64,000 nucleotides of DNA from Granulosicoccus antarcticus IMCC3135. Its GTDB lineage: Bacteria; Pseudomonadota; Gammaproteobacteria; Granulosicoccales; Granulosicoccaceae. Below, piece by piece: positions 51,510 through 64,000 of the stretch. The translations under genes and the position numbers were made by a program. Each line of letters starts with the position of its first letter. Positions within the stretch are counted from its first letter, which is position 1. The DNA is taken from the NCBI RefSeq assembly GCF_002215215.1, contig NZ_CP018632.1:1320001-1384000 (forward strand). The letters are read 5' to 3'. The notes under the pieces are model-generated. The model had not been told where the DNA came from and did not search any database. It saw only the letters and a program-made list of their open reading frames with translations.

Positions 51510-53045
51510 TCAGTCCTTAACAGCACCGATGTCGTCGCGGCGCATGCGTCGACGGATAATTCCGCCCAGCAAGATGGGCAGTACGAAGCCGGTGATTGAG
51601 ACGATCCAGAGACCAATGGCCAGCGGCGAACTGAGCAGAGCGCTCCAGTCACCATCGGATATGGTCATGGCACGACGCAGATTGTCTTCCATGTTGTTGC
51701 CCAGCAGAATGCCCAGAATGACGGGTACCAGTGGAACATCGAGTTTGCGCAGTACCCAACCCAGGAGACCGAAGACGATCATGACCATCAGATCGAAAGT
51801 GGAACCTGAGATGCCATAAATACCGACAAAGGAGATCATGGCAACAATCGGCATCAGAATGCGAGGTGGAATCAGCAGCACTCTGACAAACATGCCGACC
51901 ATGGGGATGTTCATGGCCAGCAACATGAAGTTGCCCAGAAACAGCGCTGCGATCAGGCCCCAGACCACATCAGGATTGGAGATGAACAGCAGTGGTCCTG
52001 GCGTGATGTTCAGTGCCAGCAACATGGCCAGAAGTACCGCTGTAGTACCCGAACCCGGTACGCCCAGTGCCAGCATGGGAACCAGAGCGCCACCCGCGGC
52101 TGCATTGTTACCCGCTTCGGGTGCCGCAACACCTCGCGGATCACCTGTGCCGAAAGTGCCATCCTTGTCGACCATTTTCTTTTCCAGTGAATAGGAAATG
52201 AAAGATCCCAGGGATGCTCCGGCACCTGGCAGTACACCAGCGATGAAGCCGATGAATGAGGAGCGCAACATGGTTGGCGTACAGCTCTTGAGCAGTGCCC
52301 AGGAAGGGGTTATGCGCCCAATGCTGACTTTTGCAGACTTGCCTTCGCCGGTACCATCACCGCGATGTTCCAGAAACAGGAAAACCTCGGACAGGGCAAA
52401 CAATCCGACAATGGCCACCAGAAAGTCGATGCCGTCATACAGATGAACTTCACCGAAAGTGAATCGTGGCACACCGGTCTGTCCGTCAACGCCGACCATG
52501 GCGATCACGATACCCAGGGCCGCAGCAAATGCAGCCTTGGCCTGATTTTTCGAAGTGATGCCACCCAGAGTGGCAAAAGCCAGGGCAAACAGAGCAAAGT
52601 ATTCAGCCGGTCCAAACAACAGGGCAACCTTGACCAGTTGTGGGGCAAGAAATACCAACCCCCAGGTGGCAAAGAAGGCCCCGACAAATGAGGCCACCCC
52701 TGATAGAGACAGGGCTTCTCCGGCGCGTCCCTGCTGCGCCATCGGATAGCCATCCAGTGTGGTCATCAACGCCGGTTCGTCCCCCGGAATGTTGAGCAAG
52801 ATCGAAGAGATACGCCCACCGTACATCGCTCCGTAATAAACGGAGGTCAGTAGAATCATGGCGGCCGTAGGTTCCAGTCCCAGCGTGAAGGCCAGGGGTA
52901 TGAGTATGGCGACACCGTTGGATGGGCCAAGTCCGGGAAGGGCGCCGATGATGGTGCCCAGAAAGCAGCCTACAAAGGCCAGAAATATATGCTGCCACGT
53001 CAATGCAACGGCAAAGCCGTTGAGCAGGGAGTTTAGTGATTCCAT
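51510..53045 (-). CDS. tctA: Tripartite tricarboxylate transporter large membrane subunit (TctA), system 1
   Basis: A 511-residue protein with about 12 membrane helices. TctA marks are GALPGLGPSNGVAILIPLAF near residue 35, YGAMYGGRISSILLNIPGDE and ALMTTLDGYPMAQQGRAGEA in the first half, and PGAGASLGSFISYSLEKK near residue 260. It forms the membrane channel of a TTT transporter for a carboxylate. It is the last gene of tctC-tctB-tctA (15 bases after tctB). The substrate is unknown; citrate and other di- or tricarboxylates are typical. Confidence 0.93.
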   Translation of the reverse strand: MESLNSLLNGFAVALTWQHIFLAFVGCFLGTIIGALPGLGPSNGVAILIPLAFTLGLEPTAAMILLTSVYYGAMYGGRISSILLNIPGDEPALMTTLDGYPMAQQGRAGEALSLSGVASFVGAFFATWGLVFLAPQLVKVALLFGPAEYFALFALAFATLGGITSKNQAKAAFAAALGIVIAMVGVDGQTGVPRFTFGEVHLYDGIDFLVAIVGLFALSEVFLFLEHRGDGTGEGKSAKVSIGRITPSWALLKSCTPTMLRSSFIGFIAGVLPGAGASLGSFISYSLEKKMVDKDGTFGTGDPRGVAAPEAGNNAAAGGALVPMLALGVPGSGTTAVLLAMLLALNITPGPLLFISNPDVVWGLIAALFLGNFMLLAMNIPMVGMFVRVLLIPPRILMPIVAMISFVGIYGISGSTFDLMVMIVFGLLGWVLRKLDVPLVPVILGILLGNNMEDNLRRAMTISDGDWSALLSSPLAIGLWIVSITGFVLPILLGGIIRRRMRRDDIGAVKD

Positions 53046-53060
53046 CAGGATAGGTGCTCG

Positions 53061-53492
53061 CTAGAATCCAAACGGGCCGCGCGCTAGCGACAGTCCGAGA
53101 ATCAGGTGAAAGACGGTGTAGATACCAATTGAGGTCAGTGTTCCGGAGACAATCGACCATAACGGCGTCGTGCCTAGTCGCCAGGTCAGGAAGGCGGCGG
53201 CAACAGCGGTTGCAATCAGAAATCCGGCAATAGGCAGAGCCAGGGCGTAAGCCACCATGACACCGGCAGCAGCGAGTATTTCCATCATCCGGCCAAGACG
53301 TGGCCACTCTGGCTCCACATCGGGTTTGAAGATGATAAACACGCTGGATATGGCCATGACGATGGCAATGATGATTGGAAAGGTTCTCGGACCGACCGGA
53401 TCCGATATAAAACTCAGTTCAATGTGGAAGGCCGCCCAGATGAAAAGCGACGCGAACAAAAGTCCGACGCCACCAAAGATGCGATCACTCAT
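53061..53492 (-). CDS. tctB: Tripartite tricarboxylate transporter small membrane subunit (TctB), system 1
   Basis: A 143-residue protein with four membrane helices (MSDRIFGGVGLLFASLFIWA; FPIIIAIVMAISSVFII; AAGVMVAYALALPIAGFLIA; IGIYTVFHLILGLSLA). TctB is poorly conserved, so the call rests on length, helices and position between tctC and tctA. The ATG at 53492 gives the usual short N-terminus; the in-frame extension to 53591 is polar and unlike the family. It partners with TctA in the membrane. Confidence 0.9.
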   Translation of the reverse strand: MSDRIFGGVGLLFASLFIWAAFHIELSFISDPVGPRTFPIIIAIVMAISSVFIIFKPDVEPEWPRLGRMMEILAAAGVMVAYALALPIAGFLIATAVAAAFLTWRLGTTPLWSIVSGTLTSIGIYTVFHLILGLSLARGPFGF

Positions 53493-53591
53493 GATGAAAA
53501 ACTCTGGAGTAGGGTGTTTTAAGGGGGAGCAGAGGGGCGACAGAGGGCGGTGCGTTACACCTGAGCCTCGTTCACGTCGCCCGTCTGCCAA

Positions 53592-53609
53592 GAGCCTGAA
53601 AACAGGCTC
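53592..53609 (-). terminator. Stem-loop between tctC and tctB
   Basis: GAGCCTG (53592-53598) pairs exactly with CAGGCTC (53603-53609) around a 4-base loop. Placed right after tctC, it may stop most transcripts or protect the tctC mRNA so that the binding protein is made in excess. Confidence 0.6.
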
Positions 53610-53619
53610 CTGGTTACAA

Positions 53620-54606
53620 CTACTTGATCAGGCCAATCTGCTTGGAAAGCTCAGTGATCGAGGCTACTGAGTCAGCCACAAAGGCTTGAAAATCATCACC
53701 TTGCAAGTCAAGTGGCGCCAGGCCGCTGTCTGCCATTTCCTGCTTCCATTCGTCAGAAGCGTAGACCTTGCCGACTGTTTCTACCCAATAGTCATAAGCT
53801 TCATCACTCATGCCGCCCGGGGCATAGAAGCCGCGCCAGTTTGCACCGATCACATCAACACCCTGTTCTCTGGCTGTCGGGAAAGCGGCGAAATCACCGG
53901 CGAGACGCTCAGGTGCCAGTACGGCGATGACACGGATGTCACCAGAATCTACAAAACCCTTGGCTTCGGAGGCGTCGCCCGTGAAGGCCTGTACAGAACC
54001 ACCGAGTACTTGCGTGATGGCCTCGCCACCGCCGTCAAAAGCTACGTATTTGACAGTACGGACATCTTCGATACCGGCTTTGTTAGCTGCCAACAGTACT
54101 TTCAGGTGATCCCATCCACCCACCGCTGAACCACCGGCGATTGCCACTGATCGTGGATCGGTCTTGATCTGGTCAAGCAGTTCGGGCAAGGTTTTGATGG
54201 GGCTGTCCTGAGCGACGGCGATGATGCCATAGTCGGCGCCAACGGAGCCAATCCAGCGAACCTGACTCATATCGTTGCCAGGATACGCACCCTGGGCCAG
54301 TCGAGTCGCGGTCGCAGAAGAGGCTGCTACAATCAGATCGTTGTCACTGTTACGCTTGTTGACTACGGCTGCAAACGCAACGCCACCGCCGCCGCCAGAC
54401 ATGTTAGTGACCTGAAGTGTGCCGGGAATGGCTTCCAGATCCTGCATGGTCTTGCCAACTTGACGACAAGTGAAATCCCAACCGCCGCCCGGATCAGCCG
54501 GTGCAATGCATTCGGTGTTTTCAGGTTCGTAGGCCTGCAGGCTGGTGCTTGCGAGCAGGGCGAGAGACGCCAGAAGCAGTCTGTTCTTGTTCCGAGTGAT
54601 AATCAT
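53620..54606 (-). CDS. tctC: Tripartite tricarboxylate transporter periplasmic binding protein (TctC), system 1
   Basis: A 328-residue TctC-type binding protein. The signal peptide (LLLASLALLASTSLQAYEPE) is followed by CIAPADPGGGWDFTCRQVGK, the family's substrate loop, and NMSGGGGGVAF. AIAGGSAVGGWDHLKVLLAA and GANWRGFYAPGGMSDEAYDY follow. It captures a carboxylate in the periplasm. AGGA lies 10 bases before the ATG. It heads the tctCBA operon and is divergent from a response regulator, suggesting that the two-component system controls it. Confidence 0.93.
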   Translation of the reverse strand: MIITRNKNRLLLASLALLASTSLQAYEPENTECIAPADPGGGWDFTCRQVGKTMQDLEAIPGTLQVTNMSGGGGGVAFAAVVNKRNSDNDLIVAASSATATRLAQGAYPGNDMSQVRWIGSVGADYGIIAVAQDSPIKTLPELLDQIKTDPRSVAIAGGSAVGGWDHLKVLLAANKAGIEDVRTVKYVAFDGGGEAITQVLGGSVQAFTGDASEAKGFVDSGDIRVIAVLAPERLAGDFAAFPTAREQGVDVIGANWRGFYAPGGMSDEAYDYWVETVGKVYASDEWKQEMADSGLAPLDLQGDDFQAFVADSVASITELSKQIGLIK

Positions 54607-54781: not shown

Positions 54782-55453
54782 ATGCGCCTGTTGCTGGTAG
54801 AGGACACGCCAGATGTTGCCGAAGCCATCGCTGTGAGTTTTGCGCGTGCGGGAGACACACTGGATTGTGCCGCTGATCTGAAACAGGCGCGCGCCAGTCT
54901 CCACGTGCAGCAATACGATGTCCTGATCCTTGATATCAATCTGCCCGATGGCAGCGGTCGAGATCTGTTGGCCGAACTGCGTCGCGAGCGCAACGCCGTT
55001 CCGGTGCTGATGCTCACCGCCAGGCTGGGTATCGAGGAGCGTGTCGCCTCCCTTGATGGTGGTGCCGATGACTACCTGACCAAACCCTTTGATCTGCGCG
55101 AGTTGCAGGCGCGGGTTCGAGCCCTGCATCGGCGTTCGCCGGCGGTGCGCGAACCGACCATTGAGTTCGGTTCGCTGGTGATTGATGTTGCCGGCAAGAC
55201 ACTGACGTGCAACGGTGATGCTCTCGTTCTGACTCGACGTGAATTCAGTCTGCTCGAAGCACTACTTGATCGTCGTGGCAGGGTGGCTTCGAAGGAGCAT
55301 ATTCTGAGTCGCATGTTCTCGTTCGATGAGGCAGAAGTGGGAACCAATGCCATTGAGCTTTATGTGTCGCGCTTGCGGCGTAAACTGGCAGGCAGTCAGG
55401 TTGCCATTCGTACGTTGCGTGGTCTTGGGTACCAGCTTGTTGATGAAGCCTGA
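54782..55453 (+). CDS. OmpR-family response regulator (TctD/PgtA-like)
   Basis: A 223-residue two-domain regulator. The receiver has acidic residues in LLVEDTPDVAEA, the phospho-acceptor Asp51 in VLILDINLPDGSGRDLL, and TKPFDLRELQARVRALHRR. The C-terminal winged helix (about 130-220; LTRREFSLLEALL, TLRGLGYQLVDE) is of OmpR type. CGGAGA lies about 9 bases before the ATG. It is divergent from tctC (175 bp) and overlaps the kinase gene by 11 bases. Likely role: switching on tctCBA when the carboxylate is present. Confidence 0.92.
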   Translation: MRLLLVEDTPDVAEAIAVSFARAGDTLDCAADLKQARASLHVQQYDVLILDINLPDGSGRDLLAELRRERNAVPVLMLTARLGIEERVASLDGGADDYLTKPFDLRELQARVRALHRRSPAVREPTIEFGSLVIDVAGKTLTCNGDALVLTRREFSLLEALLDRRGRVASKEHILSRMFSFDEAEVGTNAIELYVSRLRRKLAGSQVAIRTLRGLGYQLVDEA

Positions 55454-56828
55454 ATCCGGCACCTCGCTGACTCGGCGTCTGGCCTTGTCGATTTCAATGT
55501 TGCTGATTGCAGGTGGCGCGCTGGTCAGTCTGGCGGCGCTGGCCTACGGACGCCAGGCGGCACAGACAGCCTTTGATCGTTTGCTACTGGGATCCGCCCG
55601 TCAGATAGAGGCGAGCACCAGTGTACTGGATGGTCAGGTGATGGCCGATATTCCAGTCTCGGCATTTGAACTGTTGGCACTGGCACCTGAGGACCGGGTC
55701 GTCTATCGTATCGTTGGTCATGATGGCAAGACGTTGACCGGTTATGACTCTCTGGTCATTCCAAAAGAGAACATGGCTGAAGTGGCTTACTACGATCTGG
55801 AGTTCGGCGGAGAGCCGATTCGGGTCGTTGCCTTGTCACACCGATTTGCCGAACGAGCATTCAGCGGCACCATTCAAGTGCTGGTAGGCCATACCTTGCG
55901 GGCACGCAAAGCGCTGGCTCAGGAATTGGTGGGCAGTGCCATACTTGTAGTGGCGCTGGTGGGCGTGAGCATGGCAGGCCTTGCCATTTTTGCAGTTTAT
56001 TCGGCGTTACGCCCATTGCACCGTATTGAACGCAGTTTCAGCTCTCGCGATCCACGCGATCTGACCCCCCTTGACGTTGCGGTGCCCAGTGAGCTGACCC
56101 CGGTGGTGAATGCCATCAATCGGTTCATGTCACGTCTGGGTCGACAGATGGAGACGACAAATAATCTCATTGCAGACTCGGCTCACCAACTGCGTACCCC
56201 CGTGGCGGCCCTGCGAGCGCAGACCGAACTAGCCACCGAAGAGTCTGACCCTGCGGCTCTGGCCAAGGCACTGGCCAGGATTCATGCACGCAGTCGCAGC
56301 CTGAGTCGGCTCACTGATCAATTGCTGAATCGTGCGCTGGTCATTCATCGTAATGATTCGGCTGTTCGAACCCTGGTTGATGTCCGCACTGTCGCTATTG
56401 AAACTGTCGATGAGTTCGATATCGACAGTCAGGGTCGATCCCGGGAGCTCAGACTTCAGCTTCCTGAGCATGCTGTGTGGGTGCGTGGCGATGTGCTATC
56501 GCTGCGCGAAGCCTGCAAGAATCTTGTCAATAATGCCTTTGCGCATGGTCAGCCGCCGGTAACGCTGAGCGTCTTTGCGGAGCAGGGCAAGGTCATACTG
56601 GCGGTGGAAGATCGGGGCAAAGGCATGGATCCGCAGACGACATCGAGGGCAGGAGAGCGCTTTTTACAGTCAGAAGAGACTGGGCGATCCGGTAGTGGCA
56701 TTGGTCTGGCCATTGTTCATGAGGTGACCCGGGCACACGAGGGAAGCTTGCGATATTCGGTAGATGAGGTGCAGGGTTTCAAGGTATCCATGGTGCTACC
56801 TGGAGAGAATAATGCCAGCAAAGACTGA
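55443..56828 (+). CDS. Sensor histidine kinase (TctE-like)
   Basis: A 461-residue membrane kinase. Two helices (about 15-37 and 163-187) flank a periplasmic sensor of the TctE type (FDRLLLGSARQIEASTSVLD). A HAMP segment, the HisKA box with His248 (LIADSAHQLRTPVAALRAQ), the N box EACKNLVNNAFAHG, and G boxes VEDRGKGMD and GSGIGLAIVHEVTRAHEG complete it. The ATG at 55443 overlaps the regulator gene by 11 bases and its end overlaps the binding-protein gene by 17, so all three are coupled. Confidence 0.92.
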   Translation: MKPESGTSLTRRLALSISMLLIAGGALVSLAALAYGRQAAQTAFDRLLLGSARQIEASTSVLDGQVMADIPVSAFELLALAPEDRVVYRIVGHDGKTLTGYDSLVIPKENMAEVAYYDLEFGGEPIRVVALSHRFAERAFSGTIQVLVGHTLRARKALAQELVGSAILVVALVGVSMAGLAIFAVYSALRPLHRIERSFSSRDPRDLTPLDVAVPSELTPVVNAINRFMSRLGRQMETTNNLIADSAHQLRTPVAALRAQTELATEESDPAALAKALARIHARSRSLSRLTDQLLNRALVIHRNDSAVRTLVDVRTVAIETVDEFDIDSQGRSRELRLQLPEHAVWVRGDVLSLREACKNLVNNAFAHGQPPVTLSVFAEQGKVILAVEDRGKGMDPQTTSRAGERFLQSEETGRSGSGIGLAIVHEVTRAHEGSLRYSVDEVQGFKVSMVLPGENNASKD

Positions 56829-58020: not shown

Positions 58021-59376
58021 ATGCCACTCTTGAAGCCTTTTGGACGTTTATTCCTCACAATCTTTCTGCCCGTTTTTCTGTTCTTCAATACGGGGTTCGC
58101 TGTGGCTGCATCCAAAGTCGAGATCCTGCACTGGGGTGATGACTGGTCCATTGAAGTGGACGGTCAGCCCTTCGAGCTAAAAGGCGCGGGTATGGGGTAC
58201 TCCGATGAAGCCGGTATTGCCATTCTGGCTAAAGCCGGTGGCAACGCTTTTCGTACCTGGGGCACCGAGCATCTGGATGTGCAACTGGCGGCAGCCGAAC
58301 GTCATGGACTCAAGGTGTTGGTAGGTCTCGACATGCAAAAGCAGCTACAAGGTTTTGATTACAACGACAGCGCTGCCGTGGCTGCCCAGCTGGCCATGCT
58401 GAAAGCCAGTATTGATCGCTACAAGTCGCATCCGAGCTTGTTGGGCTGGATCATTGCCAACGAGCCGAACCTCATGATTGGTGCCGATGGTGGTGCGGTG
58501 CAGCCAAACCCGAAGGTCTACGCGGCGATGGGGGATGTTCTGGATTACATTCATGAGCACGACCCTGATCATCCGGCAACCGTGGCATTCGCCTTCACCG
58601 GGACACTGGCAGACGACGTCAATCTGGCTTTAAAATCCATGCCGACACTCGATTTTCTGTCATTTCAAGCTTACGGTGCTCTACCGGCCATTGCGCCCTT
58701 GGTTGAAGAACTCGCTGTCGAACTGCCGTATATGGTCACTGAGTTCGGACCGTTGGGACACTGGGAAATGCCAGCGACGCAATGGGGGCGTGAAATTGAA
58801 GAGGCTAGTGGCGCCAAGGCTGCTGGTCTGGTTGATCGGATGTATCAGGCCGGACTGAACAATCCAGAAGGACAGCTACTGGGCGGCTTTGCCTTTCTTT
58901 GGGGGCACAAGCAGGAACGCACACCAACCTGGTATGGCCTGTTTACCGAAGATGGCGGTCGCACCGCTGCGGTGGATGAGCTTACCCGTCTGTGGACAGG
59001 TCAATATTCTGAGCAACGGGCCCCTTCGGCATGGGGCCTGAGGCTGAATGAACTGCAGGCGACAGAAAATATTGTGCTGGCGCCCGGTGAGTCGGTACAT
59101 GCCAGGCTGCAGGCGAGTGATCCTGAAGGCGACTCCCTGAGTATTCGCTGGCAACTCATGCATGAGGTGCAGGCGCGCAGTCATGGTGGTCATTTTGAGG
59201 CGGAACCTGATGCGGTGAGGCTTGATGCTGGAAAAACCACCAGCGTCGGTGATGTCCATGAAATGATGCTGCGGGCACCGCTGCAGCCGGGAGAGTATCG
59301 GCTCTACGCCTGGGCGCAAGATGGCTCTGGGGGAGTGGCCACGGCAAACTTTCCATTTCTGGTGGCCGCTCCCTGA
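58021..59376 (+). CDS. Secreted GH2-type TIM-barrel glycosidase-like protein
   Basis: A 451-residue exported protein. The signal peptide (FLTIFLPVFLFFNTGFAVAA) is followed by a TIM barrel like the catalytic domain of GH2/GH5. WGDDWSIEVDGQPFELKGAG opens it, GWIIANEPN carries the acid/base Glu148, and PYMVTEFGPLGHWE carries the nucleophile Glu241. A C-terminal beta domain (about 345-451; APGESVHARLQASDPEGDSL) resembles a carbohydrate-binding or Ig-like fold. Activity is likely a beta-glycosidase (galactosidase, mannosidase or glucanase); the substrate is unknown. It converges on the sulfatase-maturation gene, suggesting a shared role in sulfated polysaccharide use. Confidence 0.75.
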   Translation: MPLLKPFGRLFLTIFLPVFLFFNTGFAVAASKVEILHWGDDWSIEVDGQPFELKGAGMGYSDEAGIAILAKAGGNAFRTWGTEHLDVQLAAAERHGLKVLVGLDMQKQLQGFDYNDSAAVAAQLAMLKASIDRYKSHPSLLGWIIANEPNLMIGADGGAVQPNPKVYAAMGDVLDYIHEHDPDHPATVAFAFTGTLADDVNLALKSMPTLDFLSFQAYGALPAIAPLVEELAVELPYMVTEFGPLGHWEMPATQWGREIEEASGAKAAGLVDRMYQAGLNNPEGQLLGGFAFLWGHKQERTPTWYGLFTEDGGRTAAVDELTRLWTGQYSEQRAPSAWGLRLNELQATENIVLAPGESVHARLQASDPEGDSLSIRWQLMHEVQARSHGGHFEAEPDAVRLDAGKTTSVGDVHEMMLRAPLQPGEYRLYAWAQDGSGGVATANFPFLVAAP

Positions 59377-59428: not shown

Positions 59429-60496
59429 TCAAGCTTCGTCCCAGACGACCCTGAAGCTCTGATGTGTTGTGGTGCTATCCGGAGTTGAACCTGTTCGAGC
59501 CGCTATCCGGTAACGATAACAATAACTCTTGTGGCACAAGAAGGACCCACCCTTGGCCAGTTTGTAGTCTTTCATCGAGCGTATGCGTGAGCGGGCCTTC
59601 GGGTTGCGGGATTTGTTGCTGTAGTTATCCGCTGTCCACTCCCAGACATTACCGCACAGGTTGTACAGTTCATAACCGTTGGGTTCGAAAGAGCGAGCTG
59701 GTGCGGTGCTCAGGTAGCCATCGGCTCCGGAGTTGGTATCGGGAAAAGTCCCCTGCCAGATATTACAAGGCAGGGTGTCGGTGTCGTCCGGCTCTGTATC
59801 TCCCCAGGGAAATTTGACATCGCCCAGCCCGCCGCGGGCCGCATGTTCCCACTCCGCTTCGCTGGGCAGTCGACCGCCGGCCCACCGGGCATAGATCGTC
59901 GCATCATTCCACGACACATGTACCACCGGATGATCAGGATGCCAGCCCCTAGCCTGGGTTCCCGGGCCATTCACATCTCGCCAGTTAGCTCCGTTGACCC
60001 GCCGCCACCATTCGATGCCCGGTATTCCTTGCGTACGCTCAATGTCTTCGGGTACCTGTTGCCAGAACACATACGACCAGCCAAAACGTTCTGCTTCAGT
60101 GACATACCGGGTCTGTTCGATGAATTGAAGAAACTGGGTATTGCTTATCGCGGTCTGGCTGATACGGAACGGTTTCATACGAACGCGACGCAGTGGCGTT
60201 TCGCCATCATCGCGAACCCCCGGATCTGAGGTGCCTACCAAGGCGCTACCACCGGGAATCGATCGGGCTGCTGGTCTGAGTGATACTTCACAGCGCAGCG
60301 TGCTGAATGCGGCCGAAACGCCAGGGCTTGTCGCTTGCTCGCCGCGCACAGGCGCGCAGCAGGCATGTTCGGAACCGGTGTCGAACTGGCTGACAGCCGG
60401 AGCGGGCCTGGTCGGGGAGCAGCAACTGTCGCTGTGCGTGGCAACTGCCTGCAAGCGACGATCACTGGAGGCGTTGTTGCACTTCGCAGGGATCAT
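59429..60496 (-). CDS. Formylglycine-generating enzyme (sulfatase modifying factor) with a CC-rich N-terminus
   Basis: A 355-residue FGE, which oxidises the active-site Cys of sulfatases to formylglycine. The core is typical: FRISQTAISNTQFLQFIEQT, GRLPSEAEWEHAARGG and NLCGNVWEWTADNYS. The two active-site Cys, near 321 and 326, lie in GGSFLCHKSYCYRYRIAAR, as in human FGE. The first 80 residues are unusual, with paired cysteines (SDSCCSP; EHACCAPVRG) and no signal peptide. The ATG overlaps the sulfatase stop (ATGA at 60493-60496); ATGs at 60508 and 60520 are also possible. Confidence 0.9.
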   Translation of the reverse strand: MIPAKCNNASSDRRLQAVATHSDSCCSPTRPAPAVSQFDTGSEHACCAPVRGEQATSPGVSAAFSTLRCEVSLRPAARSIPGGSALVGTSDPGVRDDGETPLRRVRMKPFRISQTAISNTQFLQFIEQTRYVTEAERFGWSYVFWQQVPEDIERTQGIPGIEWWRRVNGANWRDVNGPGTQARGWHPDHPVVHVSWNDATIYARWAGGRLPSEAEWEHAARGGLGDVKFPWGDTEPDDTDTLPCNIWQGTFPDTNSGADGYLSTAPARSFEPNGYELYNLCGNVWEWTADNYSNKSRNPKARSRIRSMKDYKLAKGGSFLCHKSYCYRYRIAARTGSTPDSTTTHQSFRVVWDEA

Positions 60497-61935
60497 TCGT
60501 ATTCCCATTTGTGCAACCATGGATCGTCGGTCAACGACTGGTAATGCCGGATTCTTGCGCAGAAATGCTCGACCAGCTCGGCTCTGTCGGGCAAGGCTGC
60601 CAGGTTGACAAGTTCGTCCGGATCCTCTTCCAGGTCGTATAGTTCAAATTTCGGTCGGTTCAGATAATGTTCCATTTCCCGATGACCGATCGTTGTACCT
60701 GCACGGCGAGCACTTTGCCAGGATGCGGAAGACCACAAGTCGGCTGCCGTAGGAAAGGTAATCTGCCAGGCGATGTTGTAGATGAATTTATATTGCTGTG
60801 TCCTGATCACGCGCATCGGGTAGTAGTTGGTGATCTGGTGAAACGAGTGCGCTGCAAACAGCTCCTCGCGCCAGTGATAAGCGTCAGAATCATTCAGGGT
60901 CGGAATGATGCTGCTGCCCAGCATGCGCGGATCCTCTGGAAGTGTTGCTCCGGCGAAGTCCAGAATGGTCGGAACGATATCGGCCCAGTTCACCAGTGCC
61001 TTGTTTCTGGTTCCGGCGGCGGCCGTGTGCAATGGGCTGTAGAGAATGAAAGGCAGTCGCATGCCTGGCTCGTAAAGAGTGGTCTTGGCGACCGGAAAAG
61101 CACCACCGTTATCGGAGATATAGAGTATGACGGTGTTGTCCATCTGCCCGCATGCTTCCAGATGATGAATCAGACGTCCCACACCTCGGTCCAGGCGATG
61201 GATGGATTGGTAGTACTCGGCAATCTCTGCTCGTGTGCCGGCGGTGTCTTCCAGGTACTCGGGAACCACGATGGTGTCAGGGTCGAAAAATACTTCCTCG
61301 TCGTCGGGAAAGTTTTCTGGCGGATTGCCAAAGTCATCCGGTTTTAGAGGATGGTCCAGTCGTAGCTTTTCGCGATGCGGATTGTAGGAGGCGTAATAAA
61401 GGAAGAAGGGCTCTTCGGTATCGGCGCTTACAAATGGCTGGCAGCGATCAGCCTTCCAGATATCGTCCCGTAAACGTCTGAACTCCTCGTCATCGTCATG
61501 TGTATGCTCGGACGCATCGTCATAGGAGGCAACGCTTTTGGTTGACTCGTTCGGATCCCAGTCGAATGGAAACTGTTCCACGGGACGATAGTGTTGCTTG
61601 CCGATTCTGCCGGTTCGATAGCCGGCCTGCTTGAGATAGACAGGCAGGGTAGTAATGCCTGCAGCCAGTGAGAAGTTGTGGGGGGAGTGAGTATGGCCGA
61701 ACGTACGGTTCGTATGATTGTGCAGTCCGGTCAGGATGACAGATCGTGAGGAGGCGCAGGAGGCCGTGGTACAAAAGGCGGTGTCGAATACGACCCCCTT
61801 GTTTGCCAGTGCGTCCAGGTTCGGTGTTTGCACCACGGCGTTGCCATAACAGCCCAGTGCCTCTCGGCCATGGTCGTCACTGACAATCAGGATGATATTG
61901 GGGCGTTTTCGATCAGGTTTTTGCATGGAAGTCAT
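60493..61935 (-). CDS. Type I sulfatase (S1 family), cytoplasmic
   Basis: A 480-residue sulfatase. The metal ligands start with IILIVSDDHGREALGCYGNA, and the modified Cys60 lies in CASSRSVILTGLHNHTN (C-x-S-x-R instead of the usual C-x-P-x-R). DNTVILYISDNGGAFPVAKT near residue 270 and IGKQHYRPV supply further metal and sulfate ligands. It resembles the heparan N-sulfatase/SGSH-like part of the S1 family. No signal peptide is seen, so the substrate must be imported, probably after trimming. It lies 66 bases after a TTT tctA and is directly coupled to the FGE gene. Confidence 0.88.
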   Translation of the reverse strand: MTSMQKPDRKRPNIILIVSDDHGREALGCYGNAVVQTPNLDALANKGVVFDTAFCTTASCASSRSVILTGLHNHTNRTFGHTHSPHNFSLAAGITTLPVYLKQAGYRTGRIGKQHYRPVEQFPFDWDPNESTKSVASYDDASEHTHDDDEEFRRLRDDIWKADRCQPFVSADTEEPFFLYYASYNPHREKLRLDHPLKPDDFGNPPENFPDDEEVFFDPDTIVVPEYLEDTAGTRAEIAEYYQSIHRLDRGVGRLIHHLEACGQMDNTVILYISDNGGAFPVAKTTLYEPGMRLPFILYSPLHTAAAGTRNKALVNWADIVPTILDFAGATLPEDPRMLGSSIIPTLNDSDAYHWREELFAAHSFHQITNYYPMRVIRTQQYKFIYNIAWQITFPTAADLWSSASWQSARRAGTTIGHREMEHYLNRPKFELYDLEEDPDELVNLAALPDRAELVEHFCARIRHYQSLTDDPWLHKWEYE

Positions 61936-62001
61936 GTCACGTGTTTGTACATCTGGAAAATGATCTGATGGAGTCGCGTTAGCGAGTAGTCTGCGAGCAG
62001 G

Positions 62002-63480
62002 CTAGCGTTTCCTTTTTCGTAGCGAGGAGACAAGAGGCAATAGTAATGCGATGGCCGTTAGCCCAATGAAGAAGGTAAAGATAGGCTTTTGGAAAAAAAG
62101 CCAGACATTGCCGTCACTGAGCAACAAGCCTCTGCGCAAGCTCTCCTCGAAGGGTTTTCCCAACACAAAGCCAATGACAACAGGGGCGAGCTGATAGCCG
62201 CCATAACGCATCAGCAAACCGATGCCGCCAGCAATGATGGCGATAAAGATATCCATGACGCTGGATCGTACCGTGTAGGCACCCACCAGTGACAGCATTA
62301 CCACCATGGGCATCAGAATCGAGGCCGGTATTCTCAGGACGCGGGTGAATAACTGTGCGCTGAGTGCTCCCACCAGCAGAATAAGCAGATTGGCGAACAG
62401 CAGTGCCATGAACATCATGTTGACCAGTACGGGCTCGTCGACATACAGCCGAACGCCAGGGGTAACACCATGTATTATCAGCGCACCTATCAGGACGGCT
62501 GTGCCGCCGTCACCCGGAATACCCAAAGCCAGAGTCGGTACCAGCGCACCTCCTGTGACAGCGTTGTTGGAGGCCTCGGATGCAATAAGGCCATCCGGTT
62601 CTCCCTTGCCAAAGTTCTCCCGGTTGGGTGATGAGCGCTTGCCATCGGCGTAGCTGACAAAGGCCGCTGTGACGGCACCGACGCCGGGCAATATGCCGAT
62701 GAACGAGCCTATGGCGCTGGCTCGAATCAGTGGCATCTTTCTGCTTTTCCATTCCTGCCAGCTCGGAAAACTGAAACCGATCTTGCTGGGCACCAGTGAC
62801 GCTGTCTTGTCTCCGGTACAGGTCTGATGCAGCACTTCGGAAAGCGCGAAAACGCCGATCAGAATAGGTACGACATGGAATCCGGCTGTCAGCTCGAAGT
62901 AATCAAAGTCGAAACGCGAGCTTCCGGTGAAGGCATCCTGGCCGACGGTTGAAAGAAACAAGCCGAGCAAGGCGGCAATAAGGCCCTTGACCGTGTTGCC
63001 TTGCGAGACCCATGCAATCGTTGTCATCGAGAAGATGATGAGAGCCAGTATTTCGATCGATCCGAACTTGATGGCAACCTGGGACAGGGGCGGGGCGGCA
63101 ACCATCAGGATAATCACCGAGAAGATACCGCCGAAAACAGATGCCCCCGTGGCCCAGCCCAGAGCTCTGTCTGCCTTGCCCTGTTGTGCCATGGGGTAGC
63201 CATCAAGAACCGTTGCGGCCGATTGCGGAGTGCCGGGTACATTGATGAGTATGGCGCTGATAGAGCCGCCGTAAACCGATGATACATACACAGATAGCAA
63301 CAGGACGATAGCCGGGCCACTGTCGAGGGCGAAAGTCAGTGGCAGCATCATCGCCAGAGCCACGACGGTACCAAGACCAGGCATGGCGCCGACAAAGGTA
63401 CCGATGACGACACCACTGACTAGTGCCGTTATTCCCTGTACGTTGAATATGAGTGCCAGTGCTAGATAGAGATCTTGCAT
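62002..63480 (-). CDS. Tripartite tricarboxylate transporter large membrane subunit (TctA), system 2
   Basis: A 492-residue TctA-type protein. It has GTFVGAMPGLGTVVALAMML near residue 27, SSVYGGSISAILINVPGTPQ and SAATVLDGYPMAQQGKADRA, then GSFIGILPGVGAVTAAFVSY near residue 260. About 11 helices are visible. It clearly differs from system 1 (tctA at 51510) and is of its own TTT branch. Its gene lies 9 bases after tctB and 66 bases before the sulfatase, so transporter and sulfatase are probably one operon. The tctC gene is likely just past the window edge. Confidence 0.92.
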   Translation of the reverse strand: MQDLYLALALIFNVQGITALVSGVVIGTFVGAMPGLGTVVALAMMLPLTFALDSGPAIVLLLSVYVSSVYGGSISAILINVPGTPQSAATVLDGYPMAQQGKADRALGWATGASVFGGIFSVIILMVAAPPLSQVAIKFGSIEILALIIFSMTTIAWVSQGNTVKGLIAALLGLFLSTVGQDAFTGSSRFDFDYFELTAGFHVVPILIGVFALSEVLHQTCTGDKTASLVPSKIGFSFPSWQEWKSRKMPLIRASAIGSFIGILPGVGAVTAAFVSYADGKRSSPNRENFGKGEPDGLIASEASNNAVTGGALVPTLALGIPGDGGTAVLIGALIIHGVTPGVRLYVDEPVLVNMMFMALLFANLLILLVGALSAQLFTRVLRIPASILMPMVVMLSLVGAYTVRSSVMDIFIAIIAGGIGLLMRYGGYQLAPVVIGFVLGKPFEESLRRGLLLSDGNVWLFFQKPIFTFFIGLTAIALLLPLVSSLRKRKR

Positions 63481-63489
63481 GTCTGGGTG

Positions 63490-63978
63490 TCAACCTTGTA
63501 AAAGTATGCCTGCAGGCAGGCTGAGTTCAGCCAGCTGCACGATGATGTACCAGGTGGCTAAGGGGGCCAGCAGGCCGACAATCAGTAGTGCCAGCTTGTT
63601 GCGACAGCCCATGGTCCACCCGGTAGTGAGTATGCCAAGGGCCATGGTTGCGTAAAATCCGAGCGTATCCTGAATACTGGCCATCACCAGCAAGATGAAA
63701 AATACCGTCATGACCCGAATGATGGCCCTCTTGCGCTCCTGCTTGTCGACAGCTTGGGCACCATCGGCTCGCGTGCCAGCTGGCATTCTCAAGGCACGCA
63801 CAAGCAACAAGGTTGCCAGCGTGAACAGCAGTATCAACAGAATTCGAGGTACGAAGACGGTGGATATCTCGTCGGGGTCCGAAAAGGCTGTGTAGCGATC
63901 GCTGAAAGTGTGTAACAGCAATAAGCCTGAGATCAGCAGAAAAGTAATCGCCGAACAGATGTTGTTGCGGCGACTCAC
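63490..63978 (-). CDS. Tripartite tricarboxylate transporter small membrane subunit (TctB), system 2
   Basis: A 162-residue protein with four membrane helices (ITFLLISGLLLLHTF; VPRILLILLFTLATLLLVRA; VMTVFFILLVMASIQ; LALLIVGLLAPLATWYIIVQ). Between the first helices it has FSDPDEIS, common in TctB proteins. The call rests on size, topology and position in front of tctA. It starts at GTG 63978, close to the right edge of the window. It is the small membrane partner of the second TTT transporter. Confidence 0.85.
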   Translation of the reverse strand: MSRRNNICSAITFLLISGLLLLHTFSDRYTAFSDPDEISTVFVPRILLILLFTLATLLLVRALRMPAGTRADGAQAVDKQERKRAIIRVMTVFFILLVMASIQDTLGFYATMALGILTTGWTMGCRNKLALLIVGLLAPLATWYIIVQLAELSLPAGILLQG

Positions 63979-64000
63979 TGCATATCCGGTATGTTCAGTC

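What the first reader, a model, noticed from the sequence alone, without database searches (positions are those of the whole stretch)
59429..63978. TTT transporter genes in one run with a cytoplasmic sulfatase and its activating enzyme
tctB, tctA, sulfatase and FGE are on one strand with gaps of 9 bases, 66 bases and a 4-base overlap. The sulfatase has no signal peptide, so its substrate must be imported; TTT systems normally carry carboxylates. Together this suggests uptake of a sulfated carboxylate, for example a sulfated uronic acid or other sulfo-organic acid, followed by desulfation inside.
Basis: inference. Interest (0 to 1): 0.55.

Follow-up and report, generated by a model that had tools for sequence, protein, structure and literature searches.

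The report
Import-and-desulfation operon for sulfated acids
A marine bacterium carries a six-gene operon that most likely pulls a sulfated sugar acid into the cell and strips its sulfate inside, and the enzyme that activates its sulfatases carries at its front end a conserved copy of its own target sequence, in a kind of extension that a review says only higher eukaryotes have.

Summary
Past the window edge the run continues with tctC and a second sulfatase up to a divergent RpiR-family regulator: sulf2-tctC-tctB-tctA-sulf1-FGE. A 14-base operator-like sequence occurs twice in the divergent gap and nowhere else in the genome.

Uptake of a sulfated carboxylate with desulfation inside is supported. 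In four genomes of the genus, 17 of 59 sulfatases lie within 6 kb of a tctA (1.7 expected). Relatives of this tctA sit beside threonate, aldonate or hydroxyacid genes. Best guess: an O-sulfated C4-C6 sugar acid. Against: of ten close tctA relatives, only one has a sulfatase beside it; the substrate is not shown.

Unexpected: the FGE carries CCSPTR and CCAPVR near its N-terminus, matching FGE's own target CxPxR. Of 97 FGEs examined (bacteria, haloarchaea), 85 carry CC there (10.7 in shuffles) in a tail otherwise near random identity. A review calls the cysteine-bearing extension unique to higher eukaryotes, and FGE's physiological reductant is unknown; this dithiol is a testable candidate.

The parts
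59429..60496 (-). FGE gene, 355 aa from the ATG in the ATGA overlap (longest frame 59429-60520)
   Evidence: PF03781 1.7e-67; best solved matches 5nxl 5.9e-86 (deposited under a kinase name) and 6s07 6.2e-86, named FGE; CHKSYC-YRYR
60344..60361 (-). N-terminal box CCAPVR of the FGE, the conserved copy, 27 residues before the core used as query
60407..60424 (-). second box CCSPTR; of 97 FGEs examined only this one has two CCxP boxes
60493..61935 (-). sulf1: cytoplasmic sulfatase, closest in sequence and fold to human N-sulfoglucosamine sulfohydrolase (sulfamidase)
   Evidence: PF00884 3.5e-49 and PF16347 3.9e-19; 4mhx 1.3e-72 over residues 10-474; fold 4miv E 2.7e-33, TM 0.78
61744..61758 (-). 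CASSR, the formylglycine site of sulf1; the proline of CxPxR is replaced
   Evidence: C-A-[AS]-S-R in all 10 sequences aligned
62002..63480 (-). tctA, large TTT membrane subunit
   Evidence: PF01970 3.8e-142; groups with a sulfatase-linked Paracoccus seriniphilus TctA and a sulfatase-free TctA of the genus, support 100/98
63490..64000 (-). tctB, small TTT membrane subunit; its ATG lies 2 bases past the window edge
   Evidence: PF07331 6.8e-12; L009:4490-5002

Best explanation
The operon sulf2-tctC-tctB-tctA-sulf1-FGE is a dedicated import-and-desulfation unit. TctC binds a small sulfated organic acid in the periplasm, TctAB carries it in, the two cytoplasmic sulfatases remove sulfate (from two positions or two related substrates), and the co-encoded FGE makes the formylglycine in both, including the unusual CASSR site of sulf1. 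The freed acid, most likely a C4-C6 sugar acid (tetronate or aldonate), enters central metabolism, and sulfate is released. The divergent RpiR-family regulator acts through two copies of TGTATAAAATATAC. Shown: gene order, families, spacing, uniqueness of the 14-mer, recurrence of TTT-sulfatase neighbourhoods, no room for a signal peptide on sulf1. Inferred: co-transcription, transport, substrate class, role of the 14-mer.
For: Spacing 52, 23, 9, 66, -4 on one strand. The 14-mer has 2 places in 7.78 Mb with up to 1 mismatch, both in the divergent gap; reversed control 0. 17 of 59 sulfatases within 6 kb of a tctA against 1.67 expected, 13 of 65 tctA involved. 30 sulfatases from TTT clusters form 12 groups at 45% identity; 24 of 30 have under 16 residues before the first strand. 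TctA relatives: sulfatase-tctC-tctB-tctA-ltnD-otnK-aldolase in Paracoccus seriniphilus (57%); beside 2-hydroxyacid dehydrogenase and DHDPS-family genes in a genus member (57%); beside ltnD; beside arabinonate dehydratase and a mandelate racemase-family gene. Sulfatase (52% to sulf2)-tctC-tctB-tctA with FGE, sugar kinase and IlvD/Edd dehydratase in Salipiger abyssi. Alpha-hydroxy-acid oxidase in two Rhodobacterales clusters; MR_MLE and GD_AH dehydratase domains in genus clusters. A TTT for a sulfur-bearing acid is known: SlcHFG, sulfolactate (PMC5812351, passages).
Against: In the TctA clade that holds the window's (11 rows), only it and the Paracoccus one have a sulfatase beside them. No threonate or aldonate pathway gene lies inside this operon; the two tetronate-kinase-family genes of the genome are elsewhere. 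In 47 other genomes of the order the best-scoring matches to sulf1 have 31-32% identity (shorter local matches reach 45%), so this exact operon is not conserved there. Sulf1's nearest structure is a sulfamidase, which would point to N-sulfate. Sulf2 relatives also pair with ABC importers. Four other sulfatases of the genome, not within 9 kb of a tctA, also read as lacking a signal peptide (L002, L004, L006, L008, by eye), so a cytoplasmic sulfatase alone does not imply TTT import. The promoter scan found fewer sites than shuffles.
Confidence: 0.52

Rival explanations
1. Sulf1 is a sulfamidase: the imported compound carries an N-sulfate (sulfamate), for example an N-sulfated amino sugar acid, rather than an O-sulfate.
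For: Best match in sequence and fold is human sulfamidase over nearly the full length, well ahead of the next fold (E 4.6e-24, TM 0.60).
Against: 29% identity only; lambda-carrageenan sulfatases of family S1_8 are also among the matches; the formylglycine motif differs (CASSR); the neighbours seen in related clusters point to hydroxy acids, not amino sugars.
Confidence: 0.2
2. The TTT carries an unsulfated sugar acid and the sulfatases serve general sulfur scavenging; the genes are joined because both are induced by the same algal material.
For: Nine of the 11 TctAs in the window's clade have no sulfatase beside them. Four non-TTT sulfatases of the genome also read as lacking signal peptides.
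Against: TTT-sulfatase neighbourhoods with 12 sulfatase groups, at least 6 changes of the label forced on the TctA trees, tight spacing, and a 14-mer found only at this operon.
Confidence: 0.2
3. Sulf2 is not a sulfatase but a phosphonate monoester or phosphodiester hydrolase of the same superfamily.
For: Solved relatives include phosphonate monoester hydrolases 2w8s (4e-24) and 4upk (2e-23); the best match, 4upl (1.9e-26), is named only sulfatase family protein. CxPAR is shared with them (recalled).
Against: The matches are partial and weak; a sulf2-like gene sits beside TTT, FGE and another sulfatase in Salipiger abyssi.
Confidence: 0.08

Closest known systems
SlcHFG, TTT for 3-sulfolactate (Roseovarius nubinhibens, Chromohalobacter salexigens; PMC5812351, passages)
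   Same: TTT importing a sulfur-bearing hydroxy acid
   Different: C-S sulfonate cleaved by other enzymes; no sulfatase or FGE (recalled)
atsRBC with atsA/atsK sulfate-ester uptake of Pseudomonas putida (recalled, no call)
   Same: importer encoded with a cytoplasmic sulfatase
   Different: ABC importer; aryl or alkyl sulfates; sulfur scavenging
L-threonate/D-erythronate pathway ltnD-otnK-aldolase (annotation)
   Same: next to close TctA relatives, in one case with a sulfatase
   Different: pathway genes are not in the window operon
Human N-sulfoglucosamine sulfohydrolase (4mhx, 4miv)
   Same: closest fold and sequence match of sulf1 among solved structures
   Different: lysosomal, CSPSR site (recalled) against CASSR here; 29% identity
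Human FGE (SUMF1) N-terminal extension with C50 and C52 (PMC7279497 and PMC4505483, passages)
   Same: cysteine pair ahead of the FGE core; recalled sequence S-C50-G-C52-G-T-P-Q-R resembles S-C-C-T-P-x-R
   Different: two inserted glycines, longer linker, ER enzyme; the comparison rests on a recalled sequence

Membership tests
Tripartite tricarboxylate transporter (TTT) | TctA, TctB and TctC encoded together | tested here: met
   PF01970, PF07331 and PF03401 in three adjacent genes
Tripartite tricarboxylate transporter (TTT) | transport of a carboxylate | not testable with these tools
   needs binding or uptake assay
Aerobic FGE (SUMF1 type) | FGE-sulfatase domain with the active-site pair C-x4-C followed by R-[YF]-R | tested here: met
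Aerobic FGE (SUMF1 type) | copper-dependent conversion of CxPxR to formylglycine | not testable with these tools
   needs protein chemistry
Type I sulfatase (S1) | Sulfatase domain | tested here: met
   both proteins, PF00884
Type I sulfatase (S1) | formylglycine motif CxPxR | tested here: inconclusive
   sulf2 CMPAR meets it; sulf1 CASSR does not, though C and R are invariant in 10 sequences
Sulfamidase (SGSH) | closest solved relative by sequence and fold | tested here: met
Sulfamidase (SGSH) | hydrolysis of N-sulfoglucosamine | not testable with these tools
   not filed as a sulfamidase
HexR (KDPG-sensing regulator) | score above the NCBIfam cut-off | tested here: not met
   214.7 bits against 296; filed only as RpiR-family (PF01418, PF01380)
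SlcHFG sulfolactate system | sulfolactate catabolic genes beside the TTT | not tested
   no model for them was run

The most novel reading that the evidence does not exclude
The N-terminal CCxPxR box of FGE is an ancient built-in arm present in bacteria, archaea and (as C50-G-C52-G-T-P-Q-R, recalled) human FGE. It imitates the enzyme's own substrate so that its dithiol reaches the Cu(I) site, where it acts as the missing physiological two-electron reductant (or as the copper loader) between turnovers. This would explain why the human extension is needed in cells but not in vitro with a thiol reductant, and it would mean that ER retention was added later.
Probability: 0.35. Interest if true: 0.82.

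Novelty: new variant of a known kind. Interest (0 to 1): 0.62.

Why it matters
TTT-fed cytoplasmic sulfatases would be a route by which marine bacteria take up small sulfated acids whole, keeping the sulfate and carbon for themselves instead of desulfating outside. Clusters with threonate and aldonate genes give definite candidate substrates. [quoted passage not shown]

Tried and rejected
A viral-contig scan gave two FGE-like matches at 27%, not used. The promoter/terminator scan was uninformative: 3 promoter-like sites against a mean of 6.5 in shuffles, 10 terminator-like against 7.7. Clusters with ABC importers beside FGE or sulfatase genes were looked at as the rival importer. Acesulfame degradation in Shinella was considered because FGEs on two Shinella plasmids matched; in the 21-kb stretch read on one of them, ABC genes and sulfatases are annotated but no TTT gene.

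My first TctA tree (50 rows) made the Paracoccus TctA sister of the window's. Adding seven closer relatives from the order changed that: the Paracoccus TctA pairs with a sulfatase-free one of the genus (100/99) and the window's TctA lies beside that pair (37 rows). The confidence was lowered from 0.58 to 0.52 for this reason. Both trees warn of long branches.

Literature: no paper on a TTT-sulfatase operon or on a bacterial FGE CC box was seen in the listings. Several listings show only the top rows (15 of 1,652, 20 of 420, 10 of 671), and the library holds open-licence papers only, so this is weak evidence of absence.

FGE counts: 97 distinct proteins with C....C.R[YF]R, from all matches at E 1e-60 or better plus weaker ones that came with loci, all but one (G688) of the 62 matches, and 13 of 259 plasmid records. 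By source CC is in 25 of 31 (order), 6 of 6 (phylum), 41 of 47 (family f56), 13 of 13 (plasmids). Of the 12 without CC, by my reading two are cut by contig ends (L041, L167), three have a hydrophobic N-terminus (L157, L158, L159), and seven are unexplained (L118, L033, L034, L139, L035, L141, L042). A further 20 FGE-domain hits failed the regex: the 11 scoring 171 bits or more all have CC; of the 9 scoring 133 or less, 2 have CC and 0 CCxP. Distances printed run one residue too high. Sampling leans to relatives of the query. That the Streptomyces coelicolor and Thermomonospora curvata FGEs lack the box is recalled; only fails to contradict it. An ACCAPVK stretch inside the Mycobacterium tuberculosis FGE is recalled and untested.
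Full report
OBSERVATION. The window is bases 1320001-1384000 of a 7.78-Mb single-contig genome; its size, as I recall it, fits Granulosicoccus antarcticus, which is inference (taxonomy look-up only). Past the right edge (L009) come tctC (L009:5026-5967) and a second sulfatase, sulf2 (L009:6020-7609 from a TTG; relatives suggest the internal ATG at about 7540), on the same strand with gaps of 23 and 52, then a divergent RpiR-family gene (L009:7886-8776). Pfam confirms TctC, TctB, TctA, two sulfatases, FGE, and HTH_6 plus SIS. So the operon is sulf2-tctC-tctB-tctA-sulf1-FGE.

REGULATION. The gap between sulf2 and the regulator holds TGTATAAAATATAC twice. With up to one mismatch it occurs at these two places only in the genome; the reversed control has none. 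This suggests a dedicated regulator. Its best NCBIfam model is HexR, below the cut-off. A kinase whose best model is KdgK, also below its cut-off, lies about 2.7 kb beyond the regulator.

SULFATASES. Sulf1 has no room for a signal peptide. Its nearest solved structure is human sulfamidase by sequence (1.3e-72, residues 10-474) and by fold (AlphaFold2 on 10 sequences, pLDDT 74, pTM 0.84; 4miv E 2.7e-33, TM 0.78, 29% identity). Eleven relatives at 50-55% by tblastn are in records titled Bacillota, Phycisphaerae, Verrucomicrobiia, Victivallales, Lentisphaeria, Spirochaetia, Poribacteria, unnamed bacteria and Pelagicoccus mobilis. All ten aligned sequences (nine relatives, 52-58%) have C-A-[AS]-S-R, without the proline of CxPxR. 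In the other 47 genomes of the order the best-scoring matches have 31-32% identity, so sulf1 may have been acquired. Sulf2 has CMPAR; relatives at 47-49% occur in the genus in TTT neighbourhoods, and the 25 best plasmid records listed have 50-58%.

TTT-SULFATASE NEIGHBOURHOODS RECUR. In four genomes of the genus, 65 tctA and 59 sulfatase matches put 17 sulfatases within 6 kb of a tctA against 1.67 expected; 13 tctA are involved. The genomes share islands, so the counts are not independent. Gene maps of 22 loci show several layouts. Thirty sulfatases from these clusters form 12 groups at 45% identity; 24 of 30 have fewer than 16 residues before the first strand; the other six have longer open frames, for most of which I judge an internal start likelier. 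On a tree of 50 TctAs chosen by me (27 sulfatase-linked, 23 not), the label needs 9 changes, at least 6 forced by well-supported branches, against 16.8 in shuffles; on the second tree of 37 rows, 8 changes, at least 6 forced, against 12.7. The link thus seems to have arisen or been lost several times. Similar clusters occur on Rhodobacterales plasmids.

SUBSTRATE. Two TctAs are about equally close to the window's (57%). One is on a Paracoccus seriniphilus plasmid, in sulfatase-tctC-(tctB, annotated hypothetical)-tctA-ltnD-otnK-aldolase, with a second TTT-sulfatase set beside it. The other is in genus member G044, without a sulfatase in 16 kb, near genes with NAD_binding_2, 2-hydroxyacid dehydrogenase and DHDPS-family domains. 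These three form a supported group (100/98). The rest of the clade has no sulfatase beside it: ltnD in Dinoroseobacter shibae, arabinonate dehydratase and a mandelate racemase-family gene in Salipiger profundus, and six loci of the order, most of them little more than a LacI-type gene and tctCBA (LacI tested in two). Salipiger abyssi has FGE, LysR, sulfatase (52% to sulf2)-tctC-tctB-tctA, sugar kinase and IlvD/Edd dehydratase, with a TctA of another clade. Other TTT-sulfatase clusters carry FMN-dependent hydroxyacid oxidase, MR_MLE, GD_AH (galactarate/altronate dehydratase-like) or split transketolase genes. A review says that characterised TTT ligands, one excepted, have two carboxylates or other groups such as sulfate and amide, and lists sulfolactate (PMC5812351, passages). 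The common reading is a sugar or hydroxy acid for this TTT clade, and, from the operon, a sulfated one here. The genome holds two tetronate-kinase-family genes elsewhere, one about 2.5 kb beyond another tctA.

THE FGE BOX. Pfam's FGE domain match starts at residue 87. Ahead of it the protein has CCSPTR (33-38) and CCAPVR (54-59). FGE's target is CxPxR (PMC4505483, passages). In 97 distinct FGEs from the order, Pseudomonadota, one unnamed family (f56) of the same phylum, and annotated plasmids that include Bacillota, Actinomycetota and haloarchaea, 85 have CC upstream of the core (shuffled mean 10.7), 74 CCxP and 38 CCxPxR (shuffled 0.09). In 82 of the 85 the script's distance from CC to the core start is 22-33, which runs one too high. 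Pairwise identity is 1.00 at both C by selection, 0.74 at P and 0.27 at R, 0.12-0.18 at the positions between and just before, and 0.07-0.10 further out on either side. The box is near the protein's start: in 11 of 13 annotated genes CC is at residue 4-23; in the other two (Nocardia, Arthrobacter) the annotated start lies downstream of an in-frame box. Of 97, only the window FGE has two CCxP boxes. Misses and limits are under Tried and rejected.

Reading of the box. A review states that the extension with C50 and C52 is found only in FGE of higher eukaryotes and that mutating these cysteines abolishes sulfatase activation and ERp44 interaction (PMC7279497, passages); another paper finds the extension not required for activity in vitro (PMC4505483, passages). 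A 2025 study shows that a two-electron reductant, supplied as DTT, closes the FGE cycle, that glutathione also works, and says the physiological reductant is unknown (PMC12123546, passages). A dithiol inside a copy of the substrate motif, conserved in FGEs that have no ER, fits a built-in reductant or copper-loading arm; pseudosubstrate inhibition and self-modification are not excluded. The comparison with human C50/C52 rests on a recalled sequence whose cysteine numbering agrees with the papers. Conservation in the set examined: shown. Mechanism: inference.

VERDICT. The operon is a new variant of known parts: a TTT importer joined to cytoplasmic sulfatases and their activator. The box is the more surprising element, and it is testable.

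Noticed in passing
window 51510-54606: A second tctA-tctB-tctC set lies about 5 kb left of the operon, followed by what reads as a two-component regulator pair (54782-56828, not tested by model); its TctA is 97% identical to one in another genome of the genus.
   Followed up: partly
G000:C1:197865-198839 (L053, L070): A third FGE paralog of the genome (70% identity) is interrupted by an in-frame TGA; in the 19 kb around it no other match to the operon's proteins was seen, so it looks like a decaying copy.
   Followed up: no
L058, L061, L097, L101, L102: Recurring cluster of TTT, sulfatase and split transketolase genes with FMO-like and/or SDR genes, in 4 of 5 with an FGE in the stretch: perhaps a separate pathway for another sulfated acid.
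   Followed up: partly
G043:C5, G044:C8, G045:C5 (L090, L091, L104, L105): Islands with two or three TTT sets and two to four sulfatases, with an MR_MLE gene (L091) and a galactarate/altronate dehydratase-like gene (L105).
   Followed up: partly
L098, L099, L100: TTT-sulfatase clusters with a phosphoesterase (calcineurin-type by Pfam in L098; similar N-termini in the other two) instead of an obvious sugar-acid enzyme.
   Followed up: no
L085, L086: Annotated FGE starts in Nocardia sp. NBC_00511 and Arthrobacter sp. Rue61a lie downstream of an in-frame CCxPxR box and are probably called too short.
   Followed up: yes
window 58021-59376: A convergent gene (weak DUF4434 match, below cut-off) with a signal-peptide-like start ends 52 bases from the FGE end.
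   Followed up: no
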